Shown in pieces: positions 4,115 through 42,005 of a DNA stretch of 64,000 nucleotides. Numbering within the stretch: position 1 is the first letter of the stretch; the number at the start of each line of letters is the position of its first letter. The DNA comes from Tupaia tana (Eukaryota > Chordata > Mammalia > Scandentia > Tupaiidae): assembly GCA_026018925.1 (NCBI GenBank), contig JAKSZU010000029.1, positions 13,043,863 to 13,107,862 of the forward strand, in the 5' to 3' direction. Both the position numbers and the translations under genes were made by a program. The notes beneath the pieces were generated by a model. The model was not told where the DNA came from and ran no database searches. It saw only the letters and a program-made list of their open reading frames with translations.

Positions 4115-4640
4115 AAGAATATTAACTGACTGTCTCTAGTCAACACTTAAGTATGCATATTATGAAAATAAATAATTCATCCTATCTTAAAAAGGCAGCA
4201 TGGTCACTGAAGCAGCATAAAAATCAAGATATGAATGGTCATTTATAAAAATGTGTTGATGATAATGTCTAGGATAATATCTTTGACTTGACTAATATGC
4301 ACTGTATTCATGCTGGGAAAAATCATGTTACCCTATAAAGTGACTAAATGTAAATTTTAATAATATTTTTAAAATGTGATCAGGAAAATACAATGATGAT
4401 AATTCATATGGTCATATCTTTGGCTGGACCAATATACAATAAATACATACTGGGGAAGCTAAATAAAAATGTGAACAAGAAAATGCCTTATTTTATTAAA
4501 AAAAAACAGCAAAGGGAATTTGTAGATTGTCCTAAGATTTAAAAAAATACAAATATAAAATTTACATAAATAATGACAATACTTGTCATAAGTAAATTTC
4601 AGCAAGAAAGTAAGTGTACCAAAATGCATAAGGGTTTAAA
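4115..4640. other. Left-arm unique DNA with two old tandem L1/HAL1-type 3'-terminal modules
   Basis: Matches the reverse complement of about 41690-42005. It contains two related A-rich 3'-terminal modules in + orientation (about 4245-4365 and 4395-4490), each with a block like CAATATAC/TAATATGC, a TGCTGGG box and CTAAATGTAAA-like end. The right arm retains the same block, so these modules predate the duplication. Confidence 0.65.
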
Positions 4641-4650
4641 GGTGGATTTT

Positions 4651-5188
4651 GTGGACTAGCCTTTAGTATTGAGGTTAAGGAGCTGAATCACACGTAGTCA
4701 GCTGCAAGGTTTTTGAATCCCAGACCTGGTGGTTAAAAAATCACATTGAGGGGAACCAGCAGTTAGCGTAATGGCTATGTCACTGGACTCCCACGTAGTC
4801 GACCACGGTTCGCGTCTCGGACCCGGTGGCTTACAACTCACGCCGGGCGCGTGTGCGTGCGTGCCCAAGATCCCGAGAGGAGAATGGAGGAGAAGGGATT
4901 GCGGCGTGACCATCGCCCCTGGGGGGTGATTTCTCGCTTTCTGTCTCTATGTCTCTCTCTGTCTGTCTGGCGAGCGCACGCTCCCTATAGCGAAAAACCT
5001 CTCAAAAAAAAAAAAAATCACATTGAGTACATGTGCAGGCATGCCCCCAAATTAGAGAGGAGACTGGAGGAAAGGGATTGCAGCCTAGTCTTTCCCTCAG
5101 GGGGTGATTTTTCACTTTCTAGTCTTTGTCTCTCTCTCATGAGCACCCATATCCTATAGCAAAAGCTGAAAATAAAATAATAAATAAG
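4651..5188 (+). mobile_element. Old long-type SINE, interrupted by a younger SINE
   Basis: The tRNA-like head (AGTATTGAGGTTAAGG, GAATCCCAGACCTGGTGG) is at 4651-4750 and the body and tail resume at 5012-5188. A SINE at 4751-5011 splits it. The right arm keeps the body of the same copy inverted at about 41270-41455, so this insertion is older than the inverted duplication. Confidence 0.85.
4751..5011 (+). mobile_element. tRNA-headed SINE, young type, nested in an older copy
   Basis: Near-consensus copy starting GGGAACCAGCAGTTAGCG. Target-site duplication AAAAAATCACATTGAG at 4735-4750 and about 5012-5027. The right arm lacks it, so it inserted after the duplication. Confidence 0.93.
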
Positions 5189-5189
5189 A

Positions 5190-5610
5190 TGGATTTCATT
5201 TGGTGAGATATGTTGATCTGAAGAGAATGGGTAAGGTTGGAAATTGTGTATTAGATTCTCATCTAAAAAAAGAGGAGAATCTATTCTGAACTTGATATTT
5301 AAAAATGACCTTTAGGTTGAATATATGGAAGACAAAATGATGACATATATTAAACACGAGCAATGATTAATTATAAAAGTTTTTATTTAAAAACTCGTAG
5401 CTAAAGGAGTAGCAAAAGTCCAGATACCAAACATGTAGAAATCACACCATGAAAGAATTTCTGGATGATTTTCACATTCCTAAATCAAAGCCCTAAGAAT
5501 TCAAAAGACCTTGTCCAATTCCCTGCATCAGGACTATAATGTGGTAAATTATGGCAGCTAAATATAGAGGAGATTCCCAATATATTCTGTTTCTTCAATA
5601 ATTCTCTGAG
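5190..5610. other. Unique DNA shared with the right arm
   Basis: No gene seen. The stretch aligns by eye, inverted, with about 40850-41240; for example ATTAATCATTGCTTGTGTTT on + at 41080 matches the complement of the block near 5358. Divergence is substantial but collinearity is clear. Confidence 0.7.
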
Positions 5611-5874
5611 GGACCAGCAGTTAGCGTAATGGCTATGTCGCTTGACTCCCATGTAGTCGACCGCGGTTCAAATCCTGGATCCAGTGGCTTAAACTCATGC
5701 CGGGCTTGTGTGCGAGCATGCCCAAGATCCCAAGAGGAGAATGGAGGAGAAGGGATTGCGGTGTGGCCATCCCCCCGGGGGGTGATTTCTCGCTTTCTAT
5801 CTCTCTCTCTCTCTGTCTTTCTGGTGAGTGCACGTGCCCTATAGTGAAAACCTCTCCAAAAAAAGAAAAAAAAA
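5611..5874 (+). mobile_element. tRNA-headed SINE, young type
   Basis: Near-consensus copy with poly-A. Imperfect target-site duplication AATTCTCTGAG (5600-5610) and AATTATCTGAG (5875-5885). Absent from the matching right-arm site near 40830. Confidence 0.92.
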
Positions 5875-5885
5875 ATTATCTGAGG

Positions 5886-6308
5886 AAAGAAGACAGACTG
5901 TGGCTCCAATATTACCCCAAGGGGTAGGACACTCAAAAACTGTTTACTTGTTTTAGCTCCTTAGCTTTTAAAGAATTATATTCCTCAGAGAATTCAGTAA
6001 CAATACAACAACTTATTTAATGAGAAACCATGGGAATTCTGTACTAGTATCCTCACATATTGTAAGGAGTTCCTGTTATTGGACTTCTACTCCAATTTGG
6101 TTTAATCATTGACAGGATACACTACTGGGTCACCCAGAGATCCCATGCGTAACTCTGTCTCTCTGCTCTTCCTGGGGACAGACCTATTTTGTAGCAATTG
6201 TTCATGGGAAGAACAGAACCAGTGAAAGTGGACACTTTGAGGATCTTGAGACATCAGAACATCCTTGTAAGTGCAGATGAATAAGCTATGGAGAGTGGGT
6301 TTTCTTTT
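5886..6308. other. Unique DNA shared with the right arm
   Basis: No gene seen. It matches the reverse complement of about 40400-40830, including GGACTTCTACTCCAATTTGG (left) against CCAAATTGGAGTAGAAGTCC (right, 40631-40650), an exact 20-bp anchor. Confidence 0.8.
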
Positions 6309-6323
6309 AAAAGCATAACTTCC

Positions 6324-7031
6324 TGAGCTGCCTGGCATATCTGAAGGCAACTGGTGAGCAAGGGGGCATTCTGCCCCCACTGCTTCCCTTCCAGACCCCC
6401 TGTCCAGGAGCCACCCAGACCCCTAGACAGCTTGCGCCTCCAGCTGCAGCTGCCTGGCACATCTGAAGGCAACTGGAGAGCAAGGGAGCACCCTGCCCCC
6501 ACTGCTTCCCTTCCAGACACCCAGTCCAGGAGTCACCCAGACCCCTAGAGAGGTAGAAATTTCCTCCATTTTTTTTTCTCCTTTACTGTACCCCATTCTT
6601 TTGTAAATTCCTCTTCTCTGTCTCTCCACAGCTTGTGCCTCTGGCTGCAGCTGCCTGGCACATCTGACGGCAACTGGCGAAATCTTTATTCCTTTATTTC
6701 TTTGTTTTCCTCTCTGCTCCTTTCCTTTCTCTTATATTGTCTTCTCTCCTTCTTCTTCCATCTTGCCAGAGGGACTAGCTAGATCTAGAATTAGAGATCT
6801 GAATGTTTCTAGTCATATAAAGTTATATTGGTTCCTCTTTATATGGAACCAACTGTGAAAAAGGAGATTCTGCTCTTCAGACACCTGACTATAGTGTCTT
6901 TTTTGAGACCACATTACTAAAAACAACAGAACAGAGACTTCGGCCAACGTCAATTCCCATCAAAAGGGAGAGACACTCCGAGCCAGTGAAACATTCGCCT
7001 AACAGGTACTTAAAAGTTAGCACATCTTCCA
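6324..7031 (+). promoter_or_regulatory. L1-B 5' UTR with repeated monomer-like units
   Basis: In L1 elements the 5' UTR carries the internal promoter. Here a GC-rich unit beginning AGCTGCCTGGC starts at 6326, recurs at 6448 (period 122 bp) and starts a third partial copy at 6649 after a T-rich insert. Each unit contains CATCTGAAGGCAACTGG and CCACTGCTTCCCTTCCAG. Tandem 5' monomers are known from mouse L1 promoters; promoter activity here is inference. Confidence 0.75.
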
Positions 7032-7785
7032 ATGGCTAGAAGTAGAAGAGCCTCCGGTATGAATAAACAAGGAAATATATCTCCATCAAAGGTACAGAGT
7101 AACTCCCCTCGATCTTCAGGGCTAATGGACGATGTTACCAAGATGACAGACAAATTGCGAACATTTATAGTGAACAAACTCTTCGAATTGGAACAGAAAA
7201 GAGACAACGAACTACAGGAGATGAGAAAGTCATTCCACGATATGAAAGAAGAAATGGACACTCTGAGAAAGAACCAGATGGAGCTATTTGAGATAAAGTC
7301 TGGAATAGAGGAAATCAAAAACTACCTTGAAAGTATTAAAAGTTGATTAGATCATGCTAAGATCGAATCTCTGATGTAGAAGATAAAACCTCTGACCTAG
7401 AAAGAACCACAAAGAAGATAGAGAAAATAACTAAAAAACACAAGGATAACATACGAGAAATACTAGATTCCATAAGATGCCCAAATATCAAAATAATTGG
7501 TATCCCAGAGGGTGAAGAAACAAATAACGGCATGGAAAATCTATTCCATAAAATCCTGGAAGAAAATTTCCCAAGTCTAGAGAGGCACTCAAGTATCAAG
7601 ACACAAGAAATACAAAGGACCCCAGCTAGAATCAACCCCAGAAGATCTTCCCCAAGGCACATCATAGCCAGACTATCCAAGACCACTGATAAAGACATGA
7701 TACTAAAACTGGCAAGAGAGAAACGAGAAGTGATGTACAAAGGTCATCCCATCAGGCTAACTCTGGACCTCTCAAGAGGAAGACA
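7032..7785 (+). pseudogene. L1 ORF1 remnant (coiled coil and RRM; C-terminal domain deleted)
   Basis: L1 ORF1 encodes an RNA-binding chaperone. The open frame starting MARSRRASGMNKQG (104 aa) carries a heptad-rich coiled coil (ELEQKRDNELQEMRKSF, MDTLRKNQMEL). It stops at 7344-7346 just before the RRM. The RRM continues in another frame (IIGIPEGEE, PRHIIARLSKTTDKDMILK, 7532-7785). The sequence then jumps from LTLDLS straight into ORF2 linker sequence (RKTER region), so the C-terminal domain is gone. Confidence 0.9.
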
Positions 7786-10674
7786 GAAAGAAGGCAAATG
7801 GATCACTTAACATCATGCCTCAGAGAATTGGAGAAGCAACAGCAAAATGATCCAAAAAACTCCAGGAGAAAGGAAATAATAAAGATATGAACAGAAATAA
7901 ATGAAATAGAAAATAAGCGAACTATACAGAAAATAAATGAAAGTAAAAGCTGGTTCTTTGAAAAGATAAACAAAATTGATACACCACTAGCGAGACTTAT
8001 TAAGAAGAGAGAAAGGAACCAGGTGAATCAAATCTGCAATGAAGCAGGAAATATAACAACAGACAAAGCAGAAATACAGAACATAATTAGAGGATATTAT
8101 GAACAACTATATGCCAAGAAACAAGACAATCTGGACGAGACGGATGAATTCCTGGACACGTATAATCTACCAAGATTGAGCCAGGAGGATACAGAAAGCC
8201 TAAATAGGCCCATAACAAGCAAGGAGGTTGAATCAGTAATAAACACCCTTCCAACAAAGAAAAGCCCTGGCCTGGATGGGTTCGCCTCTGAGTTCTATAA
8301 AACTTTCAAAGAAGAGCTAACACCCATTCTGCTCAAGTTATTTGTAAAGATCCAAAAGGGTGAATCTCTCCCGAATTCATTCTATGAAGCCTCTGTCACC
8401 CTTATCCTCAAAACAGATAAGGACGGAACAAGGAAGGAAAACTATAGACCAATATCTCTGATGAATATAGACTCAAAGATTCTCAACAAGATACTAGCAA
8501 ACCATATCCAACAACTTATAAAAAAGATCATACACCATGATAAGGTAGGCTTTTTTCCAGGAATGCAAAGTTGGTTCAACATACGCAAAACCATAAATGT
8601 AATGCACCATATTAACAGGAAAAAAGACAAAAACCATATGGTCATATCGATTGATGCAGAAAAAGCATTTGATAAGATACAACATCCCTTTATGATCAAT
8701 ACGCTCAGCAAAATTGGCATACAAGGGTCATTTCTCAACACAATAAAAGATATCTATGAACAACATCGCGAATATCATCCTGAATGGAAAAAAGCTGAAA
8801 GCTTTTCCACTAAAAACGGGTACAAAACAAGGATGCCCACTTTCTCCACTCCTTTTCAACATAGTACTGGAAGTCCTCGCCAACGCAATCAGAAAAGAGG
8901 AAAAAATTAAAGGCATCCAAATAGGAAAAGAAGAGGTGAAACTCTCTCTATTCACAGATGACATGATTGTGTACATAGAAGACCCAATGATTTCCATGAA
9001 GAAATTTCTGGAAGTAATGCATGAATACAGTAAAGTTGCAGGATACAAAATTAATATACAGAAGTCTATAGCATTTCTATATACAAACAACAGGCAGACG
9101 GAGATGAATCTGAAAAAAGTTATTCCATTTACCATAGCCACAAAAAGTATAAGATACTTAGGGATAAATCTAACCAAAGAAGTTAAAGACCTCCACAAGG
9201 AAAACTATGAGAAGCTAAAAAACGAAATTGAAAATGACACAAAAAAGTGGAAGGACATCCCATGTTCCTGGATTGGAAGAATTAATATAACCAAAATGGC
9301 AATTCTGCCCAAATTAATCTACCTATTTAATGCAATGCCAATCAAATTACCAGACACATTCTTCACAGATTTAGAAAAGACAATCATAAAATTGGTCTGG
9401 AATAATAAAAGACCCCGCATTGCCAAAGCAATTCTACAAAAGAAGAATGGAGTGGGCAGCATCTCACTCCCTAACCCAAAAATATACTACAAAGCTGTGG
9501 TAATCAAAACACCATGGTATTGGCACAGGAACAGACATGTGGACCAATGGAACAGAATTGAGTTTACAGGAATAAACTCCCAATCATTCAGTCAACTGAT
9601 TTTTGACAAGGGGTACCAGTCAATCCAGTGGGAAAAAGAAAACCTCTTCAGCAAATGGTGCTGGAAAAACTAGATTTACATCTGCAGAAGGATGAATCTG
9701 AACCCCTACCTCTCACCTTTGACAAAAATCAAGTCAAGGTAGATCAAGGATCTAAATCAAAGACCCCAAACTATTAAACTGCTTCTAGAAAACACTGGGG
9801 AAACTGTGGGAGACATTGGGGTAGGTAATGACTTCTTACATAAGACCCCTAAAGCACAGTTGATAATCCCCAAAATAGACAAATGGGATTACATCAGACT
9901 AAGAAGTTTCTGCATGGCAAAAGACACAGTAATTAGTGTGAATCGAAAGCCCTCAGAATGGGAAAATATTTTTGTAAACTATGCATCAGATAAGGGATTG
10001 ATAACCAGAATACATAAGTAACTAAAGAAGCTGTTTGGAAAAAAGATGATGAACCCCATTAAAAGATGGGAGAAGGAGTTGAAAAGAACACTCACTAAAG
10101 ATAACATACGAATAGCCAGGAGGCATAAGAAAAAATGCTCAACATCCCTCATCTTAAGGGAAATGCAGATCAAAACAACAATGAGATACCACCTAACCCC
10201 AGAATGACGAAGATTAAAAAAACAAAGAATGATAAGTGTTGGCGGGGATGTGGTGAAAGGAGAACTCTCTTACACTGCTGGTGGGAATGTAAATTAGTCC
10301 AACCACTGTGGAGAACCATTTGGAGATTCCTCAAAAATCTACAAATAGAACTGCCATATGATCCAGCAATTCCATTTCTTGGCATCTACCCTAAGGACAG
10401 AAGAATTTCTCATTGGAAAACTGCTTGCACATCAATGTTTATTGCGGCACTTTTCATGATTGTTAAGACATGGAACCAACCGAAATGCCCCCGTATGGCT
10501 GAATGGATTGAAAAACTGTGGCACATATACTCTATGGAATACTATTCAGCCATTAAGAACAACAAAACCCTGGCTTTTGACAGAATGTGGAAGAATATGG
10601 AAGATTTACTGCTGAGTGAAGCAAGCCAGGATGTGAAGGAGAGACACTGTATCTCCCCACTTAATATATACTGA
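7786..10674 (+). pseudogene. L1 ORF2 remnant (linker, RT and C-terminal region; endonuclease absent)
   Basis: ORF2 is present from just after the endonuclease. Open pieces are 8023-8910, 8756-9673, 9806-10021 and 10135-10674. RT motif A ([13 protein letters not shown]) is intact near 8647-8690. The FADD catalytic box is changed to FTDD (about 8954). The C-terminal region keeps [15 protein letters not shown], the cysteine-rich motif. The endonuclease was lost in the internal deletion, and frameshifts and stops separate the blocks, so the element is dead. Confidence 0.92.
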
Positions 10675-10895
10675 ATGTCCGCAGTCTATAACTGAAACTG
10701 ACGGGCTAAAGGATGTAAAAACACAAGAGGTGGATGTGAATGCCAGATGTGGTATGTGTGGAGGAGTGGGGCCTGGGGAAGAACATTTGGAGGAGGGATA
10801 CGAAGAAAGCATTGTTGAGACAGGGAGGTAGTGTTGTTATATTTTGATCAACTCGACTGGGGAGAAATGTTCATATATTAAAATGATCACCTTGT

Positions 10896-11176
10896 GGGAC
10901 CAGCAGTTAGCGTAATGGCTATGTCGCTGGACTCCCATGTAGTCGTAGTCGACTGCGGTTCAAGTCCCAGACCCGGCAGCTTAAACTCACGCCGGGCGCG
11001 TGTGCGTGCGTGCCCAAGATCCCGAGAGGAGAATAGAGGAGAGGGGATTGTGGCATGGCCATCCCCCCGGGGGGTGATTTCCTGCTTTCTGTCTCTCTGT
11101 CTCTCTCTGTCTGTCTGGCAAGTGCACACGCCCTATAGCAAAAAATAAAACCTCTCCAAAAAAAGAAAAAAAAAAG
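10896..11176 (+). mobile_element. tRNA-headed SINE inserted in the L1-B 3' UTR
   Basis: Near-consensus copy with a short duplication in the anticodon region (GTAGTCGTAGTCGAC). Target-site duplication TGATCACCTTGT at 10884-10895 and 11177-11188. It inserted after L1-B. Confidence 0.93.
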
Positions 11177-11259
11177 TGATCACCTTGTAAGCTAAATAAT
11201 GTGATTGAATGTATTAAAAAATGTAAATAAAAAAATAAACATATAAAAATAAGAAAAAA

Positions 11260-11469
11260 AGGAGAAAGACAGAGAGACAGAAAGCAAGAAATCACCCCCC
11301 AGGGGGAATGGTCACGCCGCAGTCTCTCCTCTTCCATTCTCCTCTCAGGATCTTGGGCATGCACGCACACAGACTCAGCGTGAGTTTAAGCCACCTGGTT
11401 TGGGACTCAAAACTGAGGTCAACTTCACAGTAGTCCAGCAACATAGCCATTACACTAACTGTTGGTCCC
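11260..11469 (-). mobile_element. Long-type SINE lacking its 3' end
   Basis: Minus-strand body and tRNA head (ends GTTGGTCCC, matching GGGACCAAC). The poly-A end is missing and the copy abuts the L1-B tail directly. Confidence 0.85.
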
Positions 11470-11764
11470 TGAAGTAATATTCTTTTTAGAGCTGAGAATC
11501 TCCAAATGGAAAATAAACAATTATAAAGACCAGTTCACTGCATAGAAAAATGTATTTGCAAATTAGTAAAAAAGACATGGTGCAGTCAATAATTGACTAG
11601 AAGATCTGAATTTAATATATTATTATCAGCAAAAAAAATTTAAAAACACTTTTTTTCAGAGTTAATGTAACAGTGTATAAAACTATAGAAAAGTGATGAA
11701 AAAGTACCTGAAATTTGCCAAATGGTTAAGAAACTGCCAAGCCAGATGCTATTTCTTTTTTCTT

Positions 11765-11957
11765 TTTCTTTAAATAGTTTGTTATTTAATTTTATTATTA
11801 TTATTATTTGTTTAATTTACAAGAGGGCATCACCTGTGCTCACCAGATAGATAGGGGATGTAGGAGTGAGAAAGCAGGCCACTAGGTCTGAGATTTGAGC
11901 CATGAACAACCATGTGTGAATCCAATGCCTTAGTTACCATGGTACTGTTTCCCTTCC
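11765..11957 (-). mobile_element. Old short-type SINE
   Basis: Minus-strand copy of the short form, which lacks the central GGAGAATGGAGGAGAAGGG block. The CACCTGTGCTCACCAGA end and a degraded tRNA head are visible. Confidence 0.7.
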
Positions 11958-12166
11958 AGAGACTATTTTAAGATTCTAGAACATAGGGAAAATTAAAAAT
12001 CCTTCAATCATAGTTTCTGGCCCTACAGAGGAACAAGATGACATGTGGGATACATTCAATTATAGAAGGGTTGTAAAGGTTAGTATAAGCATGGGGAATG
12101 TGACTCATAATTGAGTACCATTCATCATAATAGTTTCAAAAGTGTATGATACCAATGCTCTTATCA

Positions 12167-12415
12167 CAGAAAATGTTGGGCATAATGGTTACATGGTTGG
12201 ACTCCCACGTGGTCAACCACAGTTTGGTTCACACCTGGCAGCTTAAAATTCATGCTGGATGCATGTGTATGCCCAGGATCCCGAGAGGAGAATGGAGGAG
12301 GGGGGATTGCGTTGTGGCCATCCCCTCTGGAAGTGATGTCTTGCTTTCTGTCTCTCTGTTTATCTCTGTCTTTATGGTGAGCACACATGTCCTAAGGCAA
12401 AAACCTCTTGAGACA
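12167..12415 (+). mobile_element. Long-type SINE, first of a head-to-tail pair
   Basis: Head (GGGCATAATGGTTACATGG), body and tail are present, but there is almost no poly-A before the next copy starts. Confidence 0.85.
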
Positions 12416-12668
12416 AGCAAATATCATAGTGGTTACATTGCTGGACTCCCACATAGTCGACTGCGGTTTGGGTCCCAGACCCAGCAGCTTAAGCTCACAC
12501 CAGGCACATGTGTGCGTGTGCCTGAGACTTGAGAAGAAGGGATTGTGGCGTGGCCATCCCCCAGGAGGTGATTTCTCACTTTCTGTCTTTCTGTCTCTCT
12601 GTCTCTTTCTCTTTATGGTGAGTGCACACGCCCTATGGCAACAACCTCCATAAAAAAAAAAAACCTGT
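12416..12668 (+). mobile_element. Long-type SINE, second of a head-to-tail pair
   Basis: Starts immediately after the previous copy and ends in poly-A (12650-12661). The pair looks like a SINE dimer or an insertion in the first copy's tail. Confidence 0.85.
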
Positions 12669-12902
12669 CAAAAAAATAGAATGTGAAATATTTCAGGTGA
12701 CATACATGCTAACTACTTTGTCCAATTGTTCCATGTTATATTTAAAAATCCAAAAACTACTTTGTATTTTATAATTATTATACATATAACTTATGTGTAT
12801 ATATTTTATAGATATATACATATCTGTAATTTTCCTCTATATAATTTTAAAAATGTATAAAAATGGAAAAAAAGAAAAAAAGCATAACTTCCCAAGATTC
12901 TT

Positions 12903-13167
12903 TTTCTTTTCTTTTCTTTTAAATTTTTTATATACATTCAATCATATTATTTAGCTTACAAAGTGAACATTTTAATATATGAACATTTCTCCCCAGTCCA
13001 GTTGATCAGAATATCTTCCACCAATAACACCACACCTCCCCATCCCATCAATGCTCTGTCTCCGTATCCCTCCTCCAAATGTCCTTCCTTAGGTCCCTCT
13101 TCTCCATACACTCCATTTCTGGCACTAACCCCCATCTCTTGTGTTTGTACAACCTTAGGTCAATCAG
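12903..13167 (-). mobile_element. 5'-truncated L1 3' end
   Basis: Reverse complement of the L1-B/L1-C 3' UTR: poly-T, then CATTCAATCATATTATTTAGC, then CCCCAGTCCAGTTGATC and CTCTTGTGTTTGTACAAC. Short target-site duplication AGATTCTT at 12895-12902 and 13168-13175. Absent from the right arm. Confidence 0.85.
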
Positions 13168-13815: not shown

Positions 13816-13829
13816 TAACATTTAATATT

Positions 13830-32160: not shown

Positions 32161-33080
32161 CTAGTCACTCATGGGAAGGGACATGCTAAAAAGACGTCTC
32201 AGGACCCTCTTTATGTCCTTTTTCCTCAGGCTATAGATAAACTGGTTCAGTATTAGGGTGACCACAGTGTACACCACTGAAGCAGTTGCACTGGCCTTGG
32301 AATTATGGGTAGCAGTCGAACTGAGGTATACCCCAAGACCTGTGCCATAAAACAAGAACACAACGGAGAGGTGAGACCCACATGTGGAAAACACCTTATA
32401 CTTCCCTCTGGTGGATGTAATCCTCAGTATGGAGGAGACAATCTGGGAGTAAGGATAAAGGATTCCAGAAAAGAGAATAATACCCATCAGTTCAGAGGAG
32501 AGATACATCTCAATAACATTGAACAGGGTGTCTGAACAGGCCAGCTGGATGACCTGGTTGATTTCACAGAAGAAGTGGGGGATCTCCATGTCAGTGGAGA
32601 AGGACAACCATAATACCAGCAAAGTCCAGAGTAGAGAGTCCAGGATGCTCAAAGTCCAGAATGTCAACAGCCCAAAGCCACAAAGCCAGGGGGTTCATGA
32701 TGACTGTGTAGTGCAAGGGGAGACAGATAGCCACAAGCCGGTCATAGGCCATCACAGTCAGGAGGAAGATGTCCCACTCTCAAAAAATGAGGAAAAAATA
32801 CATTTGAGCGAGGTAGCCATCATAAGTGACAGTCTTGTTCTGGATGCAGATGTTCACCAGCATCTTTGGGACGGTGGTGGAGGTGAAACAGATGTCACAG
32901 AAAGACAGGTTGGAGAGGAAGAAGTACATGGGGGTGTTTAGGTGGGAGTCAGTGATGGTGGCCAGGATAATGAGTAGGTTTCTGGTCAGAGTAATCAGGT
33001 ACATAAATAGGAACAGCCCAAAAAGGATGGGCTGAAGGCCTGCCTCTTGTGAGAGTCTGAGGAAAATTAATTCTGGAAAA
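32161..33080 (-). pseudogene. Olfactory receptor pseudogene (OR7-type), right arm
   Basis: Inverted paralogue of the relic at 22721. The expected start is VESENHMYF, with GTG where the left copy has ATG. The first frame runs through [29 protein letters not shown] and [10 protein letters not shown] to an in-frame TGA near 32777. [10 protein letters not shown] follows, so the DRY arginine is kept here. A frameshift after VIMNP near 32680 moves the rest ([38 protein letters not shown]) to the frame that stops at 32161. Lost start, nonsense and frameshift make it a pseudogene. Confidence 0.93.
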
Positions 33081-33224
33081 TACATGTGATTTTCTGATTC
33101 CACAGAGCTGGAATGACTGTTGGGAAAGAGGCAATACCAGCAATACCTCACAAAGACATTCTTGGGACTAACTGTAATGGTGTGTACTGGACAGTTCTGC
33201 TTGGCAGGCAGAGGGCATATGAGA

Positions 33225-33330
33225 AGCTCAGGTTTGTTTCCCCACCCGCCCTAAAAGGCGAAGCATAATGGTGGATTCTATAATCCCAATTGGAAGGTTG
33301 AGACAGGAGGATTATGAGCTCAAGGAACAT
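33225..33330 (+). mobile_element. 7SL-derived (Alu/B1-like) monomer, right arm
   Basis: On + : GCATAATGGTGGATTCTATAA, then CCCAATTGGAAGGTTGAGAC and AGGAGGATTATGAGCTCAAGG, an Alu-type monomer. It corresponds to the second monomer at 22470-22575; the other monomer is missing here. Confidence 0.7.
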
Positions 33331-33339
33331 CTCAGTCAA

Positions 33340-33500
33340 TAGGCATTCATGTATGCATGCATGCCCTAGATCTCAAGAGGAGAATAGAGGAGAAGGGATT
33401 GTGGCATGGCCATTCCTTCTGGGAGGGGGGTGATTTCCAGCCTCTCTTTCTGGCAAACATATGTGTCTGATAGCAAAAATTTCACTAATAAAAAGAAATG
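33340..33500 (+). mobile_element. SINE body fragment without head
   Basis: Starts at CATGTATGCATGCATGCCC and runs through GAGGAGAATAGAGGAGAAGG to the CTATAGCAAAA-like end. Confidence 0.75.
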
Positions 33501-33506
33501 TGTATA

Positions 33507-33690
33507 GGGGCCAGCAGGTGGCACAGTAATTAAGGCACTGGGCTCTCATATGACTGACTGTGGTTGGAGTCTCAAACGTGACAACTTGTTTCTCACTTTC
33601 CCTCTCTCTATATATATCTTCCTGATGAGTGCATGTGTCCTATAGCAAATGGGAAAATAATAGTAATTATAAATAAGTAAAATTATATAA
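33507..33690 (+). mobile_element. Short-type SINE shared by both arms
   Basis: GGGGCCAGCAGGTGGCACAG, then CTTGTTTCTCACTTTCCC with no central block. It matches the minus-strand copy at 17938-18138. Confidence 0.85.
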
Positions 33691-33829
33691 ATGACTCTTA
33701 AAAAAAGAATCTATTATTTAGATCAGTGGTTTACATGCAGGAGTGATTCTGCCCTCCTGGGGACACTTAGGCATGTCTAGAGACATTTCTATTTTCCACA
33801 AAAAGAATGAAAAAATTTAAAGATGCTGC

Positions 33830-36241
33830 CAGAAGATCCCTCATGACTCCTGTGAAATAGTCAATTCGGGGTACAAGAGAAATGAAGATTTTCTACTGAT
33901 AACTCAGCCTCCAGCAAACCAGCTAGCATGATGGATCTAAGGGCACTGTAGCTAAACATCCAAATACTATTACAGTTAACATATTCTTCAATAGCTACTG
34001 AATCTACTGCACAAAGCGATCACAACAGAATGACCGAGAGATCATCTCTTTCTGCTTGCTCCTGAATGTTCGGATTGAACTTCAAGAATTAGGAAGAAAC
34101 ACACCATCCATCAGATGACTAAAAATCACAACAGAACCACAAGAAATATGAGAAAGCAAGAAAATACCTCTCCTCCAAGGGAAAAGAATAACTCGTATTC
34201 ATTCACAAGCAGTTCAAAGGAAATCATGGGAATGTCTGATAAAGAATTTAGAACATCCATTGATGGCGAAGCTAACAGAGATGGAAGAGAAAAGAGACAT
34301 GAACTGCTGAAGATAAAGGAGAAAGAAGTTGATGAGCTCCAGGAGGTGAGGAAATTCTTGCAAGATCTAAGAGAGGAATTACACACTTTAAAAATGAATC
34401 AAAGGGACCTGTTAGAGATGAAGACTATAATAGAGGAAGTTAAAATCTCCCTTGAAAGTATTAAAAGCAGACTAGATCATACAGAAAATAGAATCTCAGA
34501 CACAGAAGAGAAAATTGCAGGCCTAGAAAAATCCACCACAGAGACTGAGAAAATTGCCCCCAAAATTTGAGAATAATATACAAGAAGTACTAGATACCAT
34601 CAAACGTCCAAACATCTGGATAATTGGCATTCCAGAAGGCGAAGAGACCCATAAGGGCATTGATAATCTATTCCATGAAATCCTGCAAGAAAATTTTTCA
34701 AACCTAGAGAGGCACTCAAAGATCCAGTCCCAAGAAATACAAAGGACCCCAAACAGAATCAACCCAAGAAGATCTTCTCCAAGACATATTATAGCCAGGT
34801 TGACCAAAACCACAGACAAAGACAAGATACTAAGGCTGGGAAGAGAAAAACATTAAAGTTACCTACAAAGGATATCCCATCAGGCTAACAGCAGACCTCT
34901 CATCGGAAACAATGCGAGCGAGGAAAGAATGGGAAAATATATTCAAAGTGTTAAGAGAAAAGCAATTTCAGCCAAGAATACTGTACCTGGCAAGACTATC
35001 TTTTGTGTGGGAAGAAAAGTCAAGAACTTTCTCAGATAAACAAAACCTGAAAGAATTTACCAGCACCAGACCAAGTCTCCAAGAAGTTCTCAAGGGAGTG
35101 CTATATCAGGAAAGTTAAATACAGACACACGGAAATAAGAGTTCAAAAACTAAGAGTGGCCAACTTAATCATAGGGAGAAGTCTGGAATTGAATATTATA
35201 TCCCAGAATTTAATTGGGAAAATTGAACCACAACAGAGGATAAAGTACATGAGACTGAATTGGTGAAGTATAATTTTATGACTTTTGACTAAAATATTGC
35301 TGATTTTCTTGTAGGCTTTGTTATTTGGTTGTAAGGATTTGTGTCCTCTCTTGAGATATGGATAGGTTCATGCACCTATCATTTGATCAGAATCCTAACC
35401 TATTTTCTGGCTTTAAGCAAAGTTCCTTAGGATTTCTTTGACTTAAGTTAAATCTGGTTTTCTTAATAGTATCAAGTGAACTTGCTATTGAAAGTAGTTA
35501 GATTATTTAAGAAATTGTGTGATCAATACAATGTGGGTGGGAAAGGGGAAGACAATTGCAGACTCCAGAGATAGTGTGAGAAGAGGGTAGGAAAGGACAG
35601 AGGGTTAGAAATAGGGGTAAAAAAAATTTTCTAGAAACTAGAAATAGAAAATTTGTTATAATATGCATGATTAAGTCACTATGCAGTATATTCTGGATGG
35701 GAAATCACATTTTGTATGCTGTGATGATGCTTAGGGAAAGAATGTAAATTAAGTTGGAAAAAAAAGTTTCAAAAAAAAATACCTATTTGATGACTGCAGT
35801 ATGATATATAGCCCCAGCTAGGTGCTACTTTATAGGATTTTCATTCTACTCATTGAGGCTTATGCCTAAAGTTGGACTTGTGTTCATAGAAATGTATATA
35901 TCAGCTGTGCTTGCTATGAAAACATTTAGATTAATTAAGATCTTTAGTGACTCAATAAAATGTGGGGGAAAACAGTAGCAAACATAGATACCAGAGACAG
36001 TGGGAGGAGAGTGGGAGATAGCAGAGGGTAAGAGATAGGGAATCAAGGACGAGAAAAAAAAGGCAAAACATATAGAAAACAAGAAATGGAAAATTATTTG
36101 TTGATGATAACATGTACGCTGATGTGCTTGATTGAACCAATATACAGTGTACTCTGGATTGAAAATCTCATTTTGTTTGTTGTCATGATGTACAGTGAAT
36201 GAATGTAAATAAATAAATTTAAATAAAAATAAATTAATTAA
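33830..36241 (+). mobile_element. ORF1-only L1 derivative (HAL1-like) with two tandem 3' ends
   Basis: A 2.4-kb insertion flanked by a 20-bp duplication, AAAAAATTTAAAGATGCTGC at 33810-33829 and 36242-36261. The left arm keeps the empty site (about 17800-17840). It holds a 5' leader, an ORF1 remnant (34115-35118) and then non-coding sequence straight to an A-rich end near 35770, with no trace of ORF2. A second copy of the same 3' end follows (35771-36241) inside the same duplication. HAL1 (half-L1) elements with ORF1 but no ORF2 are known in mammals and must borrow ORF2 activity. Confidence 0.85.
34115..35118 (+). pseudogene. ORF1 remnant of the HAL1-like element
   Basis: MTKNHNRTTRNMRKQENTSP begins a 151-aa frame with a coiled coil (KIKEKEVDELQEVRKFLQDL, LHTLKMNQRDLLEMK). 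A frameshift near 34556 moves the RRM (IIGIPEGEE, PRHIIARLTKTTDKDK) to 34554-34856. A further shift moves the C-terminal domain (ARKEWENIFKVLREKQFQP, ILYLARLSF) to 34912-35118, ending at a stop. All three ORF1p domains are represented. The sequence is clearly divergent from ORF1 of L1-B and L1-C. Confidence 0.9.
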
Positions 36242-36399
36242 AAAAAATTTAAAGATGCTGCTCAACATCATATGCTGCCCAAGATAGCTCCCTACAAAGG
36301 ATAGTCAGCCCAAATTTTCACACTGTCATGGCGAGAAATGCTGATTCTCATACATTTCATGATTATAAACAATAACTTTTCTAAATAATTATTTATTTT

Positions 36400-36561
36400 G
36401 TTTTATTATTTTTTTTTAAATTTTGCTGTAGGGCTCACCAGAGAGTGAGAAAGATAGATAGACAGAGAAGAAAAGGGAGAAAGCAAGCTGTCAAGTTCTC
36501 AACTTGAACTATGGTCGACCATGTGGGAGTCCAGTGATTCAACCACCATGCCACCTGCCAC
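36400..36561 (-). mobile_element. Short-type SINE shared by both arms
   Basis: Minus-strand short form (GGGAGAAAGCAAGCTGTC join; head ends CCATGCCACCTGCC). Counterpart of 17494-17690. A (TGATA)-like run follows at 36562-36582. Confidence 0.85.
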
Positions 36562-36574
36562 ATGATATGATATG

Positions 36575-36977
36575 ATATGATATTCACTTGTTGAATGAAG
36601 AAGGTGAGAGCTCTGGAGCTGCCCTGGCCCACCACTCTTTGGAGAAGGAGATCCAAGCAGAGGAGGAAGAAACAGGCTGTAGGACAAATTCCATGTATTT
36701 GAGTGTGATGGACAGTGTCTGAGAGTCTTTTGGGCATATTGCCTTTGTGAAGGAAAGTGTGATTAAAGGTCCTAGCCTTGAGGACCTGTCAAAGCATAAA
36801 CACACCTACATATACACACACACAGTCTGTAGTCATTTATCCAGTATCCACAGATTTCCAACATTTACCACTGAGAGCTGAGCTTAGGAATCTTATCAAC
36901 ACCTATAGTTTTAGATCCTAGTTTCTCTATTTAAGAGCAGGCATTCAATTCATTAAGTGCTGCCTATTTTCTTTTGC
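36575..36977. other. Right-arm unique DNA
   Basis: No gene seen. Inverted counterpart of 16426-16850. Confidence 0.8.
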
Positions 36978-36979
36978 TT

Positions 36980-37014
<35 letters not shown>

Positions 37015-37258
37015 ATTTTTGTCATAGGTTTTGTGCACTTGCTGGAGAGAGACAGAGAGAAAGGGAAAGTGACATATCATTCCCCACATGGAGGGATGGA
37101 GATGTTACAATCTCCTCTCCTCCATTCTCCTTTCTATATTATGGGTATGTGTGCACACATGTCTCGTGTGTTTTTCAAGTTGCTAGGTCTAGGACTTGAA
37201 CCATGGGGTTTGCCATGTATGACCCAGTGCCTTAACCACCATGCCACCTGCTGGCTTT
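36978..37258 (-). mobile_element. Long-type SINE shared by both arms
   Basis: Long poly-T (36982-37010), tail, body and head (CTGCTGGCTTT). Counterpart of 16150-16425. Confidence 0.9.
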
Positions 37259-37551
37259 ATTTTTGTGCATTCTGTCTCTCAGATATTTTTGTTCTTCTCT
37301 TGCTGTTCATGTCCTACCTCCAGGCTGGTTCTCACTAAATTCGGAAATAACCAGAATTGGATAGCTGCAAATATAGGGCCCTTGGTGATTATGACCTACC
37401 AAGCCAGTAACATCTTTAGTGTGCCTATTCTTTCCCCCATTGTTGCCCAGCCATTTAGGGTTATCCAAATGGTCTAATGATGCAATGTACTTCTATGTTT
37501 ATTGTGGTAAAACTCACGTAGCATAAAATTCAACATTATAATCTTTTTAAC
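37259..37551. other. Right-arm unique DNA
   Basis: No gene seen. Inverted counterpart of 15881-16149. Confidence 0.8.
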
Positions 37552-37804
37552 ATTTTTTTTTTCATTTTCTTTTTAAGTTTTTGCCATAGGGTGTATGTGC
37601 TTGCTGGAAAAAGACAGAGAGAAAAAGTGAAAAATCACCCTGCAAGCAGGACGGTCATGCTGCAATCCTTTCTCCTCCATTCTCCTCTTAGGATTTTGAA
37701 CACTTACACATACACACCCACCTTGTTTTCAAGTTGCCAGGTCCAGGACTTGAGCTGCAGTTGACAACATGGGAAGCCAGCACTTTAACCATCAGCTGGC
37801 CCCT
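37552..37804 (-). mobile_element. Long-type SINE shared by both arms
   Basis: Minus strand, TTTTTGCCATAGGGTGTATG to CAGCTGGCCCC. Counterpart of 15616-15880. Confidence 0.9.
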
Positions 37805-38103
37805 AATGTAACCATTTTAAAGGGTACAATACAGTGGCATTTTCACAATGCTATGTCCACATCACCATTATCTAGTTCCAGAACTCTTTTTGCCTCCCCC
37901 AAAGAAAACTGCATTTTCCCTGGAAGTCATTCACCATTCATCTCTCCACCAGCCTTAATAACCACTAATCTTTCTTTCTCTATGGATTTGTTTATTCTGT
38001 ATATTTTGTAAAAATGGTATCAGCAAATGCATCTTGTCATGTCTGTCTTCATTCACTGTTTATCACTTACCATGTCTGCACCCTAAGTCCTTCTGACTAG
38101 AGG
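37805..38103. other. Right-arm unique DNA
   Basis: No gene seen. Inverted counterpart of 15328-15615. Confidence 0.8.
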
Positions 38104-38334
38104 ACTTTTTTTTAAGGTTTTTGCTACATGGCATGTCCACTCACCAGAAAGACAGTGAAAGGGAAAGTAAGAAATCATCACCCAAGGGGAATGGCCCACT
38201 GCAGTCCCTTGTCCTCCAGGAATTTTGGGCACACACACACATACATGCCTGGTGTGAGGTTTGAGTTGCCAAATCTGAGACTGGAACAGCAGTAAAAATT
38301 CCAGTGCCTTAACCACTACACTACCTGCTGGTCC
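38104..38334 (-). mobile_element. Long-type SINE shared by both arms
   Basis: Minus strand, CTACATGGCATGTCCACTC to CTGCTGGTCCCC. Counterpart of 15063-15314. Confidence 0.9.
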
Positions 38335-38751
38335 CCTGCCTAGAAGATTCTTACCTTGACAACTCCAACTCCTCTTTCAAGGTTTATTTCTATGGTTTTC
38401 TTTTTCCTTTCAGATATCCTCTTTTCTTTTCTTATGTTTCTTCCTCTCAAATAACTGCCCCTAGGCAAAGTTGGACATTCTTCATTGCATTCAGTCTCCA
38501 TTATGTTGCCTATCACAGAGTATTGATTTGATTTTTTTTTTTTTTTTTTGGTCTTTGTCCACTCTTTGATGGAAAGAGAAATATCTTATCCCTTCCTTTA
38601 TTCTACAACACAGTTGAATGCTTACAATAGAGTAATTCCTGGTTGTTCCTGCCTCAGTGAATGGAGAAGCAAATGCATTAATACATAATTACATGAGTAA
38701 TACATGATTACATGACTTTAAAAGGAAATCATTAATAATGGATGAAAGGAA
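38335..38751. other. Right-arm unique DNA; empty site of the left-arm LTR
   Basis: No gene seen. Inverted counterpart of 14823-15062 and 14000-14058. CTTTATTCTACAACACAGTT (38600-38619) spans the position where the LTR sits in the left arm. Confidence 0.78.
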
Positions 38752-38945
38752 ATTTGGGGGGGAAATGGAGAGGTAAGATACTTGTGAGACACAGATAAGA
38801 TTTATTATCTGTTGACAAGGATGCGTATGGTGGTCTCAACTGGGCTGGACTGAGGTGCATATCATGCTGGGTAAAGTATCTTCACAATCTAAATGCTGTA
38901 TAGTGATTTAATGTATGAATAATAATAAAAATATTTTTAAAAATA
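38752..38945 (+). mobile_element. 5'-truncated L1/HAL1-type 3' end
   Basis: AATTTGGGGGGGAAATGGAG through CATGCTGGGTAAAG to ATTTAATGTATGAATAATAA. It splits right-arm DNA that is continuous in the left arm near 13960. Confidence 0.8.
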
Positions 38946-39097
38946 ATGAAAAAAAGAATCAGGGACACAGAAATAAAAGCGAAAGTGAGTGTGGAGGATG
39001 CAAAGGAGGGAATGGAATGAATAGGACAGCTGAAGCTACAAAATTGAAAGCCATAGAAGAGAAACCATATTTTTCCCCAGTGTATTCATTTGTAAAT

Positions 39098-39387
39098 TTA
39101 TTTTATTTTTTTAATACATTCAATCACTATACATCATTTAGCTTGTACAGAGAATCTACCCAATATGAAATACACCTCACACCAATCCAGTTGAGAATAT
39201 TACACATTATCATCAACAGGTAATAAACCTGCAAATGTCTTACTTCTCTATTTGTCTCCCTAATTTCCTTCCTTACACTCCTCCCCTCTCCCACACTCCT
39301 TCTACACTGTCTCCAGTGTCCATAACTATTTTCAACACTTTATGCCCTCCAATATTTCAGTGCAGAAAAACTATATTAAGAAATATT
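39098..39387 (-). mobile_element. 5'-truncated L1 3' end
   Basis: Reverse-complement L1 3' UTR: TTTTTTTAATACATTCAATC, CCAATCCAGTTGAGAATATT and CATAACTATTTTCAACAC. Confidence 0.8.
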
Positions 39388-39389
39388 AG

Positions 39390-39662
39390 GGAACCAGGAG
39401 GTGGCATAGTGATTAAGGTGCTCGATTCACATGGCTGAGCACGGTTCAAGCCACAGACCTGGAGGCTTAAAAATCACACAGGGTGCATGTACATGAGTGT
39501 CCCAAATCCCTAGAGTAGAATGGAGAAAGAACTGTAGCATGGCCATACCCCTGAGAGGTGATTTCTCACTTTCCCTCTCTCTGTTTCTCTCTCTCTCTCT
39601 GGCAAGTGCACATACCTATGGCAAAAAGAAAAAAAAAAAAAAAAAGAAAAGAAAAATCAAAA
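39390..39662 (+). mobile_element. Long-type SINE
   Basis: GGAACCAGGAGGTGGCATAGTG head, body and a long A-rich tail (39620-39662). Confidence 0.9.
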
Positions 39663-39680
39663 CAAACAAACAACAAAACA

Positions 39681-40300
39681 GGAACCAGAAGATAGCATCA
39701 GGAGGGACCAGCAGTTAGCATAATGGCTATGTCGCTGGATTCCCATGTAGTCGACCGCAGTTTGAGTCCCAGACCCGGTGGCTTAAACTCAAACTGGGCG
39801 TGTGTGCGTACTTGCCCAAGATCCCAAGAGGAGAATGGAGGAGAAGGGATTGAGGTGTGGCCATCCCCCCTGGGGGGGGGGGGGTGATTTCTCACTTCCT
39901 GTCTCTCTGTCTCTCTGTCTGTCTCTGTCTGTCTGGCAAGTGCACACACCCAATGGGGGGGAAAAAAACCTCTCCAAAAATTTTTTAAAAATAATAAAAT
40001 AATAAAAAAAGATAGCATCAGGATTATATCACTGGACTTGCACATAGTTGATCATAGTCTAAGTCCCAGACCCAGTAGCTTAAAACTCATGCTGGTTGCT
40101 TGTGCATGGGTGTCCAAAAATCCTGAAAAGAGACTGGAGGAGAAGGGATTATGGCATGTCCATCCCCCTGTGGGGAGGGGGTGTGACTTTTTGCTTTCAG
40201 TCTCTCTGTCTCTGTCCCTCTGGTGAGAACACACACAACCTATACCAAAATCTCTCTTAAAAATAATAATAATAAAATGAACTTTTTTAAAAAAGAGAAA
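39681..40300 (+). mobile_element. Older long-type SINE interrupted by a young copy
   Basis: The head starts at 39681 (GGAACCAGAAGATAGCATC) and resumes at 40010 after the insertion, running through the body to the A-rich end near 40300. Confidence 0.88.
39704..40009 (+). mobile_element. tRNA-headed SINE, young type, nested
   Basis: Target-site duplication AGATAGCATCAGGA at 39690-39703 and 40010-40023. The palindrome region carries an expanded G run (39869-39886). Confidence 0.93.
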
Positions 40301-41269
40301 GAAACATTAGGTTGCAGCTATTTCCAAGTCCAGTATCTTAAAATGGGAAGGTCTTGATCTTGAACTTTTACCTTTTTCCCTGTTTGAAACCTTGGGAAGT
40401 TATCCTTTTAAGAGGAAACCCACCCTCAATAGCTTATTCTTATTTTTCTGCACTTACAAGGATGCTCTGTCTTCTCAAGATGCTACCACTGAAGAGTCCA
40501 CTTTCACTGGTTTTGTTCATCCCATAAACAATTGTTAAGAAAGAAGTCTGTTCCCAGGAAGGGCAGAGAGACAGAGCTACTCATGAGATCTCTAAGAGAC
40601 ACAGCAAGGTTTCTTCTGCTAATGGTTAAACCAAATTGGAGTAGAAGTCCAATAAGAGGAAGTCCTTACAGTATGTGAGGCTTTTAGGACAGAATTCTCA
40701 TGGTGTCTCATTAAATAAACTGCTGTTTTTGTATTCTCTGAGGAATATAATTATTTAGAAGCTAAGGAGCTAAAACAAAGTAGACTTTTTGACAGTCCTA
40801 CCCTTGAGGTAATATCGGAACCAAAGCCAGTATCCTTTCCATAGATAGTTATTTAGGAGGCAGAGTATATTAAGACTCCCCTCTACATTTAGATGCTATA
40901 GTTTACCTATTATAGTCCTGATACAAGGGATTGGACAAGGGTTTTTGAATTCTTAGGGCTTTGATCCAGGAATGTGAAAATCATCCAAAAATTTTTCATT
41001 GTGTCATTTCTACATGTTTGGTATCTGGCCCTTTGCCACCCTGTCAGCTAAAAAAAAATTTAATAACCACTGTTATAATTAATCATTGCTTGTGTTTAAT
41101 ATATGTCATCATTTTGTCTTCCATACATTCAACCTGAAGAATATTTCTAAATATCGAGTTCAAAATAGATTCTCTTCTTTCTTTTTTTTATAGAAGAGAA
41201 TCTAATACACAATTTCCAACATTACTCATTCTTATCAGATCAAAATATCTCACCAAATGAAACCTCTTA
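40301..41269. other. Right-arm unique DNA; empty site of L1-B
   Basis: No gene seen. Inverted counterpart of 13178-13250, 5886-6323 and 5190-5610. At 40385-40400 the DNA is continuous where the left arm carries the 6.5-kb L1-B unit. Confidence 0.8.
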
Positions 41270-41455
41270 TTTTATTTTTTTAGTTTCAGTTTTTGCTATA
41301 GGGCAAAGATGCTTGTCAGAGAGATAGAGAGACAGAGACACAGAGAAAGTGAGAAATCACCCCCCTTCCAGAAAAGCCAGACTGCAATCCCCTCTCCACC
41401 AGTCTCCTCTCTGGATTTTTGAGCAGGTACACACATGTACCTGGTGTGATTTATG
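41270..41455 (-). mobile_element. Long-type SINE without its tRNA head, shared by both arms
   Basis: TTTTTGCTATAGGGCAAAG, body and CTGGTGTGATTTA; the head is missing. Counterpart of 4651-5188. Confidence 0.8.
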
Positions 41456-41539
41456 TCAAATATTATTTTGATTTGTGTTAATTTTATGTTTCATTTTATC
41501 TTAGGACAATCTACAATTCCCTTTGCTAAGTTATAGATA

Positions 41540-41547
41540 GATAGATT

Positions 41548-41605
<58 letters not shown>
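41540..41605. repeat. (TA)n microsatellite
   Basis: About 60 bp of nearly pure TA in AT-rich right-arm DNA. The left-arm equivalent near 4480-4520 has no such run. Confidence 0.95.
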
Positions 41606-41606
<1 letters not shown>

Positions 41607-41689
41607 TGCTAATTTATATATATGCATATATATAAACATGTATATATGTATGTATATATATAAAGACATTTTCTTGCTTACATTTTTAT

Positions 41690-42005
41690 TTTTCCCAGTA
41701 TGAATACATTGTATATTGGTCCAGCCAAAGATATTAACATATAAATTATCATCTTTGTATGTCCCTGCTCACATTCCTAAAATTATTGTTTTAATTTACA
41801 TTTAGTCACTGTACATCCCTACAGTGTGCTACATGGTTTTTCCCAGCATGAATACAGTGCATATTTGTCAAGTCAAAGATAATACCATAGACATTATCAT
41901 CAGCACACTTTGTAAATGATCATCCACATTATGATTTTATGCTGTTTCAGTGAGCATGTTGTCTTTATAATATAGTTTTAATTATTTATCTTCATAGTAG
42001 GCATA
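41690..42005 (-). mobile_element. Old tandem L1/HAL1-type 3'-terminal modules, right arm
   Basis: Inverted counterpart of 4115-4490: two modules, each with a complement of the CAATATAC and TGCTGGG boxes (CCAGTATGAATACATTG and CCCAGCATGAATACAGTG). Confidence 0.65.

What the first reader, a model, noticed from the sequence alone, without database searches (positions are those of the whole stretch)
4115..42005. Old inverted duplication of about 10 kb of unique DNA, with arms at 4.1-24.1 kb and 31.9-42.0 kb
Reading the right arm in reverse complement recovers the left arm in order across at least twelve blocks, including 5886-6308/40400-40830, 14823-15062/38340-38620, 15328-15615/37805-38100, 15881-16149/37262-37540, 22721-23700/32150-33080 and 23700-24120/31860-32150. 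Four or more SINEs, a 7SL-derived monomer and an OR relic are shared. Length differences are mostly explained by arm-specific insertions. The true spacer is small, because L1-C fills most of 24.6-31.6 kb. Divergence is visible in every block, so this is an old event, not a recent palindrome.
Basis: seen in the sequence. Interest (0 to 1): 0.8.

Follow-up and report, generated by a model that had tools for sequence, protein, structure and literature searches.

The report
Ancient inverted olfactory-receptor gene pair
This stretch of a mammal-sized genome holds two long-dead smell-receptor genes facing each other inside an old mirror-image duplication, and that mirror-image pair has itself been copied to several other places, an ordinary if unusually clear example of how such gene clusters grow.

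Summary
Window 4118-23868 (+) and 42039-31958 (-) form one collinear inverted diagonal. Arm divergence is K2P 0.15-0.25 in 11 of 14 blocks, so it is old.

Two parts of the reading need correcting. First, the DNA is not unique. The inner block is an olfactory receptor (OR) gene, broken in both arms, with 25 copies at >=82% identity, 21 of them on the same 15.8-Mb contig. Second, the event is not local. The inverted structure recurs at locus B (pieces 96-99%) and, flipped, at locus C (92-97%). Receptor trees put left arms with left arms and right with right across five paired loci; sister arms at this locus are rejected. The inverted pair therefore predates these block copies.

The arms also extend further. 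The right arm reaches at least 45.7 kb; its partner lies left of the window, displaced by an insertion that copy C lacks.

No 7SL match was found. The most likely account is an ancient inverted duplication of an OR gene with its flanks, amplified as a unit by segmental duplication and padded by L1s and SINEs: a known kind of history.

The parts
4118..23868 (+). left arm (A_L) within the window
   Evidence: collinear inverted chain to 42039-31958
31958..42039 (-). right arm (A_R), the part whose partner lies in the window
42027..45699 (-). outward continuation of the right arm; partner at about -6508 to -2191, outside the window
4118..4489 (+). outer block, pairs with 42039-41663; part of it (about 4251-4374) also matches many other contigs and so holds a dispersed repeat
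5015..6323 (+). outer flank blocks (5015-5607 and 5870-6323), pair with 41452-40395; block 5886-6308 has 24 matches in the genome, 20 of them upstream of a copy of this receptor
6324..12877 (+). left-arm-only insertion containing L1 sequence, present in copy B, absent in copy C; 15-bp target-site duplication
13824..16830 (+). middle flank blocks with SINEs at matching places, pair with 39071-36580
17505..18300 (+). flank blocks, pair with 36556-33354
22499..23868 (+). left olfactory receptor pseudogene and flanks (Pfam 7tm_4): 5-bp deletion and a stop against an intact paralog
31958..33325 (-). right olfactory receptor pseudogene, convergent with the left one: frameshifts and a stop
52237..53791 (+). 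third, more distant olfactory receptor pseudogene (OR-b), right-hand outward member of the larger unit

Best explanation
The window holds one copy (locus A) of an old inverted duplication unit. An ancestral segment with an OR gene (OR-a) and its upstream flank, probably with a second OR (OR-b) further out, became duplicated in inverted orientation, giving the convergent order <-OR-b ... OR-a-> <-OR-a ... OR-b->. The whole unit was then copied to other places by segmental duplication: the line of loci E and F split off early, then C, then B and A. Some copies later lost one arm's receptor. L1 and SINE insertions stretched the arms unequally, and both receptors were already broken when the A/B/C block was copied. 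Shown: the inverted diagonal, the en-bloc copies, the mirrored arm trees, lesions shared by A/B/C and different ones in E/F, and an insertion with its empty site. Inferred: that the first step was a replication-based inverted duplication, and that the later copies arose by ordinary non-allelic recombination or template switching. No function is needed; the structure is a by-product of cluster growth.
For: Inverted chain and low-copy blocks. Copies B and C hold the same inverted pair with flanks over at least 60 kb. Sixteen of 25 receptor copies form 8 neighbouring pairs on opposite strands, all 8 convergent; one further close pair (5.090+/5.137+) is direct. Receptor tree: left clade (7 rows) 100/99, right clade (5 rows) 98/99, both ordered ((A,B),C),(E,F), the A/B/C with E/F node of the left arms at 80/82; A_L+A_R as sisters rejected, p-AU 1.1e-6; all A+B+C arms as one clade rejected, p 1.0e-9. 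The outer-flank tree (A_L+A_R p 8.5e-5; right arms of A, B, C only, F_m joining them) and the 3'-flank tree repeat the split. Single receptors at 12.07 Mb and C431:13.50 Mb are followed by an inverted outer block at 80% identity, the level of the known right arms (80-82%), as expected of collapsed pairs (not put in a tree). OR-b matches lie outward on both sides at 4 loci. A left-arm stop and a right-arm +1 are each shared by A, B and C; E and F carry other lesions.
Against: With a distant outgroup added, deeper supports fall: L+R 70/98, left clade with the two singles 72/99, G pair 86/81. Pairs D/H and G do not group by arm with L and R in the receptor body, nor in the outer flank, where L with the D_p/H_m type and G_p is rejected (p 1.3e-6); so either the inverted duplication happened more than once or exchange between arms reached the outer flank too. 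Middle block 15881-16149 occurs in both arms of A, B and C and in the right arms of E and F, but was not reported for the left arms of E and F or the two singles, which needs losses or an exchange. The left OR-b was not found within 30 kb left of the window nor reported for B or C among the scored hits. No outgroup genome with the single-copy state could be examined.
Confidence: 0.87

Rival explanations
1. Local inverted duplication at this very locus, old but private to it.
For: The two arms do face each other here with a short spacer.
Against: Left-arm relatives at other loci are closer than the right arm; sister arms rejected in three alignments; en-bloc copies exist.
Confidence: 0.03
2. 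The inverted orientation came from a tandem duplication in direct orientation followed by inversion of one copy, not from an inverted duplication in one step.
For: A direct neighbouring pair of this family exists (5.090+ and 5.137+); spacers of 21-76 kb in loci D-H leave room for an inversion.
Against: All 8 opposite-strand neighbouring pairs are convergent (not independent, since most descend from one unit); OR-b sits outward on both sides at 4 loci.
Confidence: 0.3
3. The convergent pair arose independently at least three times (L/R, D/H, G) in one receptor family.
For: Within each of the three lineages the receptor bodies group together (L+R 99/98, D/H lineages 100/99, G 100/99). In the outer flank L+R as one clade (p 0.126) and the D/H types as one clade (p 0.391) are not rejected, and arm-wise grouping of L with the D_p/H_m type and G_p is rejected (p 1.3e-6). 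In the 3' flank L+R as one clade is not rejected either (p 0.133).
Against: G arms as sisters are strongly rejected in the outer flank. In the 3' flank the D/H types as one clade are weakly rejected (p 0.034), and L groups with D_p/H_m, G_m and the 5-Mb/C531 copies (90/89).
Confidence: 0.35
4. Only chance alignment of repeat families, or an assembly artefact.
For: By my reading most of the 333 inverted self-matches are SINEs and L1s.
Against: Low-copy blocks pair on one diagonal; the same structure recurs at B and C with their own divergence.
Confidence: 0.01

Closest known systems
Segmentally duplicated olfactory receptor clusters, in particular the human OR7E pseudogene duplicons (Newman and Trask 2003, seen only as a reference in PMC1794568; the paper itself was not held)
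   Same: Dead receptors carried around in large segmental duplications (OR7E described as chiefly pseudogenes in the passages of PMC1794568 that I saw; the rest recalled).
   Different: Here a convergent, inverted pair is the copied unit, nearly all on two contigs. Whether these receptors belong to family 7 is my recollection of the sequence, not a test. PMC1794568 calls OR7E primate-specific.
Large inverted duplications formed by fold-back (PMC3907307, abstract read)
   Same: Inverted copies separated by a non-duplicated spacer.
   Different: Those are rearrangements in patients; here arms differ by about 15-25% and original junctions are no longer visible.
Palindromes of mammalian sex chromosomes (recalled; start of the abstract of PMC9122934 seen)
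   Same: Inverted arms carrying members of one gene family.
   Different: Arms here are diverged, not nearly identical.

Membership tests
Olfactory receptor gene family | seven-transmembrane receptor matching Pfam 7tm_4 (PF13853) | tested here: met
   left fragment E 1.3e-33, right fragment 2.5e-20, third receptor fragment 5e-08
Olfactory receptor gene family | intact reading frame of about 310 aa | tested here: not met
   longest ATG frame 202 aa in A_L, 142 aa in A_R, with lesions; some relatives such as G_p (312 aa) are intact
OR family 7 / OR7E duplicons | subfamily assignment by tree with named receptors | not tested
   no named receptor set was used; resemblance recalled only
Segmental duplication (>=1 kb, >=90% identity) | length and identity of locus A against B and C | tested here: met
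   pieces up to 12.5 kb at 96% (B) and 8.7 kb at 94% (C)
Segmental duplication (>=1 kb, >=90% identity) | the two arms against each other | tested here: not met
   per-block identity 73.0-89.9% over 14 blocks
Recent or homogenised palindrome | near-identical arms within a locus | tested here: not met
   A_L is no closer to A_R (83.3%) than to C_R (83.9%) or E_m (84.6%) in the receptor block
Inverted duplication by fold-back or template switch | short inverted homology at the original junction | tested here: inconclusive
   arm homology fades rather than stops near 23868/31958, with scattered matches beyond; no sharp junction

The most novel reading that the evidence does not exclude
A single ancestral inverted receptor pair lies behind nearly the whole OR-a family. 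The pair itself acts as a long-lived duplication core, in which facing arms repeatedly exchanged sequence: receptor bodies were homogenised within each pair lineage, and at pair G recombination between arms left the body and the outer flank with different histories, while the short 3' flanks still show the original left/right identity across lineages (90/89). For it: G bodies sisters 100/99 but outer flanks rejecting that, and the 3'-flank split. Against it: the outer flank rejects the arm-wise grouping (p 1.3e-6), so exchange would have had to reach there too. I lowered the probability from 0.35 to 0.25 on rechecking that result.
Probability: 0.25. Interest if true: 0.5.

Novelty: new member of a known kind. 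Interest (0 to 1): 0.3.

Why it matters
It gives a relatively dated, multi-locus example in which an inverted gene pair, rather than a single gene, is the unit copied in an olfactory receptor cluster, with a hint that facing arms can exchange receptor bodies while parts of their flanks keep an older history. It is useful to people studying how receptor clusters and other segmental duplications grow; it does not point to a new function.

Tried and rejected
Repeat-only and artefact readings were rejected. A local event was rejected. A 7SL-derived monomer was looked for in Rfam at gathering score and at E<=1: none. tRNA genes: none by ARAGORN, so calling the SINE tRNA-derived rests on my eye only. 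Species: not identified; one literature search on the SINE type listed one paper, on cow tRNA genes. Inner junction: no sharp end found. The left OR-b of locus A was not found in 30 kb left of the window. Literature searches for an inverted OR pair as a duplication unit listed no paper whose title or shown start of abstract describes this; that is not proof of absence. The single-copy state in a related species could not be tested: the tool states that this genome has no relatives on hand.

Rows dropped or unreliable. F_m was left out of the second flank tree because only 24% of its columns were filled. G_p fell out of the 3'-flank tree (0 letters in the cut). In one search three same-arm values compare the wrong or a broken partner (first block L-B and L-C, and probably R-C of block 17810-18060) and are not used. 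In one search five of 25 copies found no anchor; one search placed them. The genome searches score at most about 40 candidates, so copy numbers are lower bounds. The AU p-values are from tests of groups partly named after seeing the trees.
Full report
WHAT IS THERE. The window is C419:13043863-13107862 of a 2.95-Gb assembly, a mammal by its size, olfactory receptors and L1 content (inference). A self-comparison gives one collinear inverted diagonal from 4118-23868 (+) to 42039-31958 (-). The chain score is 6004 against 1544 for the best direct-orientation chain between the same regions, which by its coordinates looks like SINE/L1 matches. Of 19 low-copy pairs in the window, 7 are on this diagonal; the other 12 (10 direct, 2 inverted) are, by my assignment, L1 pairs, matches to a third receptor, or unassigned. 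The 2.1-kb piece 14822-16830/38610-36580 aligns through SINEs at matching places. Divergence per block is K2P 0.11-0.34, with 11 of 14 blocks between 0.15 and 0.25.

WHAT THE ARMS CARRY. The block 22499-23868/33325-31958 is an olfactory receptor gene, OR-a (Pfam 7tm_4 and, for the left fragment, 7tm_1). The two copies converge. Both are broken: against an intact paralog the left has a 5-bp deletion and a stop, the right a +1 shift, a 1-bp deletion and a stop. A third, more distant receptor, OR-b, lies at 52237-53791, and a zinc-finger array at 57341-58744.

NOT UNIQUE. Searching the genome with the left and right OR-a copies gave the same 25 places at 82% identity or more among 40 scored (of 809 and 934 candidates): 21 on C419, 3 on C431, 1 on C531. 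Sixteen of the 25 form 8 neighbouring pairs on opposite strands, all 8 convergent: A (this window), B 15.72/15.73, C 14.97/14.98, D C431 8.06/8.08, E 6.95/6.98, F 2.22/2.29, G 3.60/3.64, H 8.67/8.69 Mb; one further close pair, 5.090/5.137 Mb, is direct. The outer flank block 5886-6308 has 24 matches of 24 candidates, all on C419 and C431. Twenty of them sit upstream of an OR-a copy on the same strand, 2 have no OR-a copy near them in the lists, and 2 lie near more distant receptors in the other relative orientation; 5 of the 25 OR-a copies have no such match. The middle block 15881-16149 has 8 matches: both arms of A, B and C, and the right arms of E and F.

COPIED AS A UNIT. Loci B and C contain the whole inverted pair with its surroundings: B in the same orientation, collinear pieces 96-99%; C flipped, pieces 92-97% (which listed pieces at 90% or more). 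The homology runs on to the left of the window, to at least -5361 in B and -9999 in C, and to the right to at least 55.4 kb in B and 51 kb in C, where the fetched stretches end. In the receptor tree (25 rows) the left arms of A, B, C, E, F and the single copies at 12.07 Mb and C431:13.50 Mb form one clade (100/99), and the right arms of A, B, C, E, F another (98/99). Both arms repeat the order ((A,B),C),(E,F). Sister arms at this locus are rejected (p-AU 1.1e-06), as is one clade of all A, B and C arms (1.0e-09). With a distant outgroup the right clade stays at 98/99, while the left clade of seven falls to 72/99 and L+R to 70/98. The outer-flank tree and the 3'-flank tree give the same left/right split. 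The inverted pair is therefore older than the separation of loci E and F from A. The arms of A are no more alike (83.3%) than A_L and C_R (83.9%) or A_L and E_m (84.6%), so no recent homogenisation within the locus is visible.

LARGER THAN DESCRIBED. About 6.3 kb between -2191 and 4117, with L1 sequence by my reading, is present in B but absent from C, where the flanking sequence is continuous. Beyond it the diagonal continues: -2235 to -2191 with 42071-42027, -3279 to -2796 with 42522-42068, -5222 to -3280 with 45247-43254, -6508 to -6143 with 45699-45337; C shows a similar outward continuation. OR-b matches lie outward on both sides at four loci (12.05/12.09, C431 13.48/13.52, 8.96/9.00, 2.17/2.32 Mb), the third of which has no OR-a match, and on one side only at A, B, C and E. 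The copies at 5.09, 5.14, 5.48 Mb and on C531 also have an OR-b match 17-22 kb downstream on the same strand, as the collapsed units do. So the ancestral unit probably read <-OR-b ... OR-a-> <-OR-a ... OR-b->. The two single OR-a copies at 12.07 and C431:13.50 Mb are followed, 3.6-3.7 kb past the receptor match start, by an inverted copy of the outer block at 80%, the level of the known right arms (80-82%); I take them as collapsed pairs, though that block was not put in a tree.

ORDER OF EVENTS. Same-arm divergence is about 0.01 for A-B and about 0.04 for A-C, against about 0.18 between arms (three unreliable values set aside). A stop in the left receptor and a +1 insertion in the right one are each shared by A, B and C, while E and F have other lesions: the A/B/C block travelled with both receptors already broken, and E and F lost theirs separately. 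The stretch 6.3-12.9 kb of the left arm, with an L1 reverse transcriptase, is in A and B but not C; A carries a 15-bp target-site duplication and C one near-identical site. Turning these into years would need the species' rate, which I do not have.

WHAT IS UNSETTLED. The D/H pairs form a second mirrored lineage (D_p with H_m; D_m and H_p with three singles), and G a third. In the receptor bodies L+R (99/98), the D/H lineages (100/99) and G (100/99) each group within themselves, and arm-wise groupings across lineages are rejected (R with D_m/H_p type p 0.002; L with D_p/H_m p 1.3e-4). In the outer flank, G sisterhood is strongly rejected (p-AU 5e-62, not to be read literally) and G_p falls with L (90/87). 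There L+R (p 0.126) and the D/H types (p 0.391) as single clades are not rejected, and the arm-wise group of L, D_p/H_m and G_p is rejected (p 1.3e-6). In the 3' flank, left arms group with D_p/H_m, G_m and the 5-Mb/C531 copies (90/89, not starred), the D/H types as one clade are weakly rejected (p 0.034), and L+R is not rejected (p 0.133). This mixed picture suits either one ancient pair with later exchange between facing arms, or repeated inverted duplications with some exchange at G; it does not decide. The middle block 15881-16149, reported in both arms of A/B/C but only in the right arms of E and F, is also unexplained: losses in several left arms, or an exchange in the A/B/C ancestor.

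AGAINST KNOWN KINDS. This is an olfactory receptor segmental-duplication family. The nearest described case I know is the human OR7E duplicons; PMC1794568 calls OR7E a primate-specific subfamily of chiefly nonfunctional pseudogenes with a sparser cluster architecture and cites Newman and Trask 2003 (passages seen; that paper not held). PMC3961182 lists, in a table of human inversions, one with OR7E156P (passages seen). PMC3907307 (abstract) gives the fold-back model that could make the first inverted copy; no junction survives here to test it. I rate the finding a well-resolved member of a known kind.

Noticed in passing
C419:3604550-3606150 and 3636550-3638150 (L024, L025): Pair G: receptor bodies are sisters (100/99; 86/81 with an outgroup) but their outer flanks strongly reject this, a sign of exchange between facing arms. 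G_p has a 312-aa frame and G_m lacks frameshifts and stops against it.
   Followed up: partly
window 57341-58744 (-): Open frame of 467 aa (stop to stop) with an array of C2H2 zinc fingers (Pfam), next to the receptor duplications.
   Followed up: no
C111:28251551-28251915: A 98% copy of outer block 4118-4489 on another contig, with no receptor of this family listed there.
   Followed up: no
C419:12383335 and 12406825: Two copies of the outer flank block near more distant receptors, in the opposite relative orientation to the 20 that sit beside OR-a.
   Followed up: no
window -2191 to 4117 and 6324-12877: Two L1-bearing insertions in the left arm shared by loci A and B and absent from C, usable as time markers.
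   Followed up: partly
window 4751-5017 and many others: Very abundant SINE of about 265 bp that looks tRNA-derived by eye; no tRNA or 7SL match by ARAGORN or Rfam.
   Followed up: partly
window 15881-16149: Middle flank block found in both arms of A, B and C but only in the right arms of E and F (8 of 8 candidates matched), which the simple arm history does not explain.
   Followed up: no
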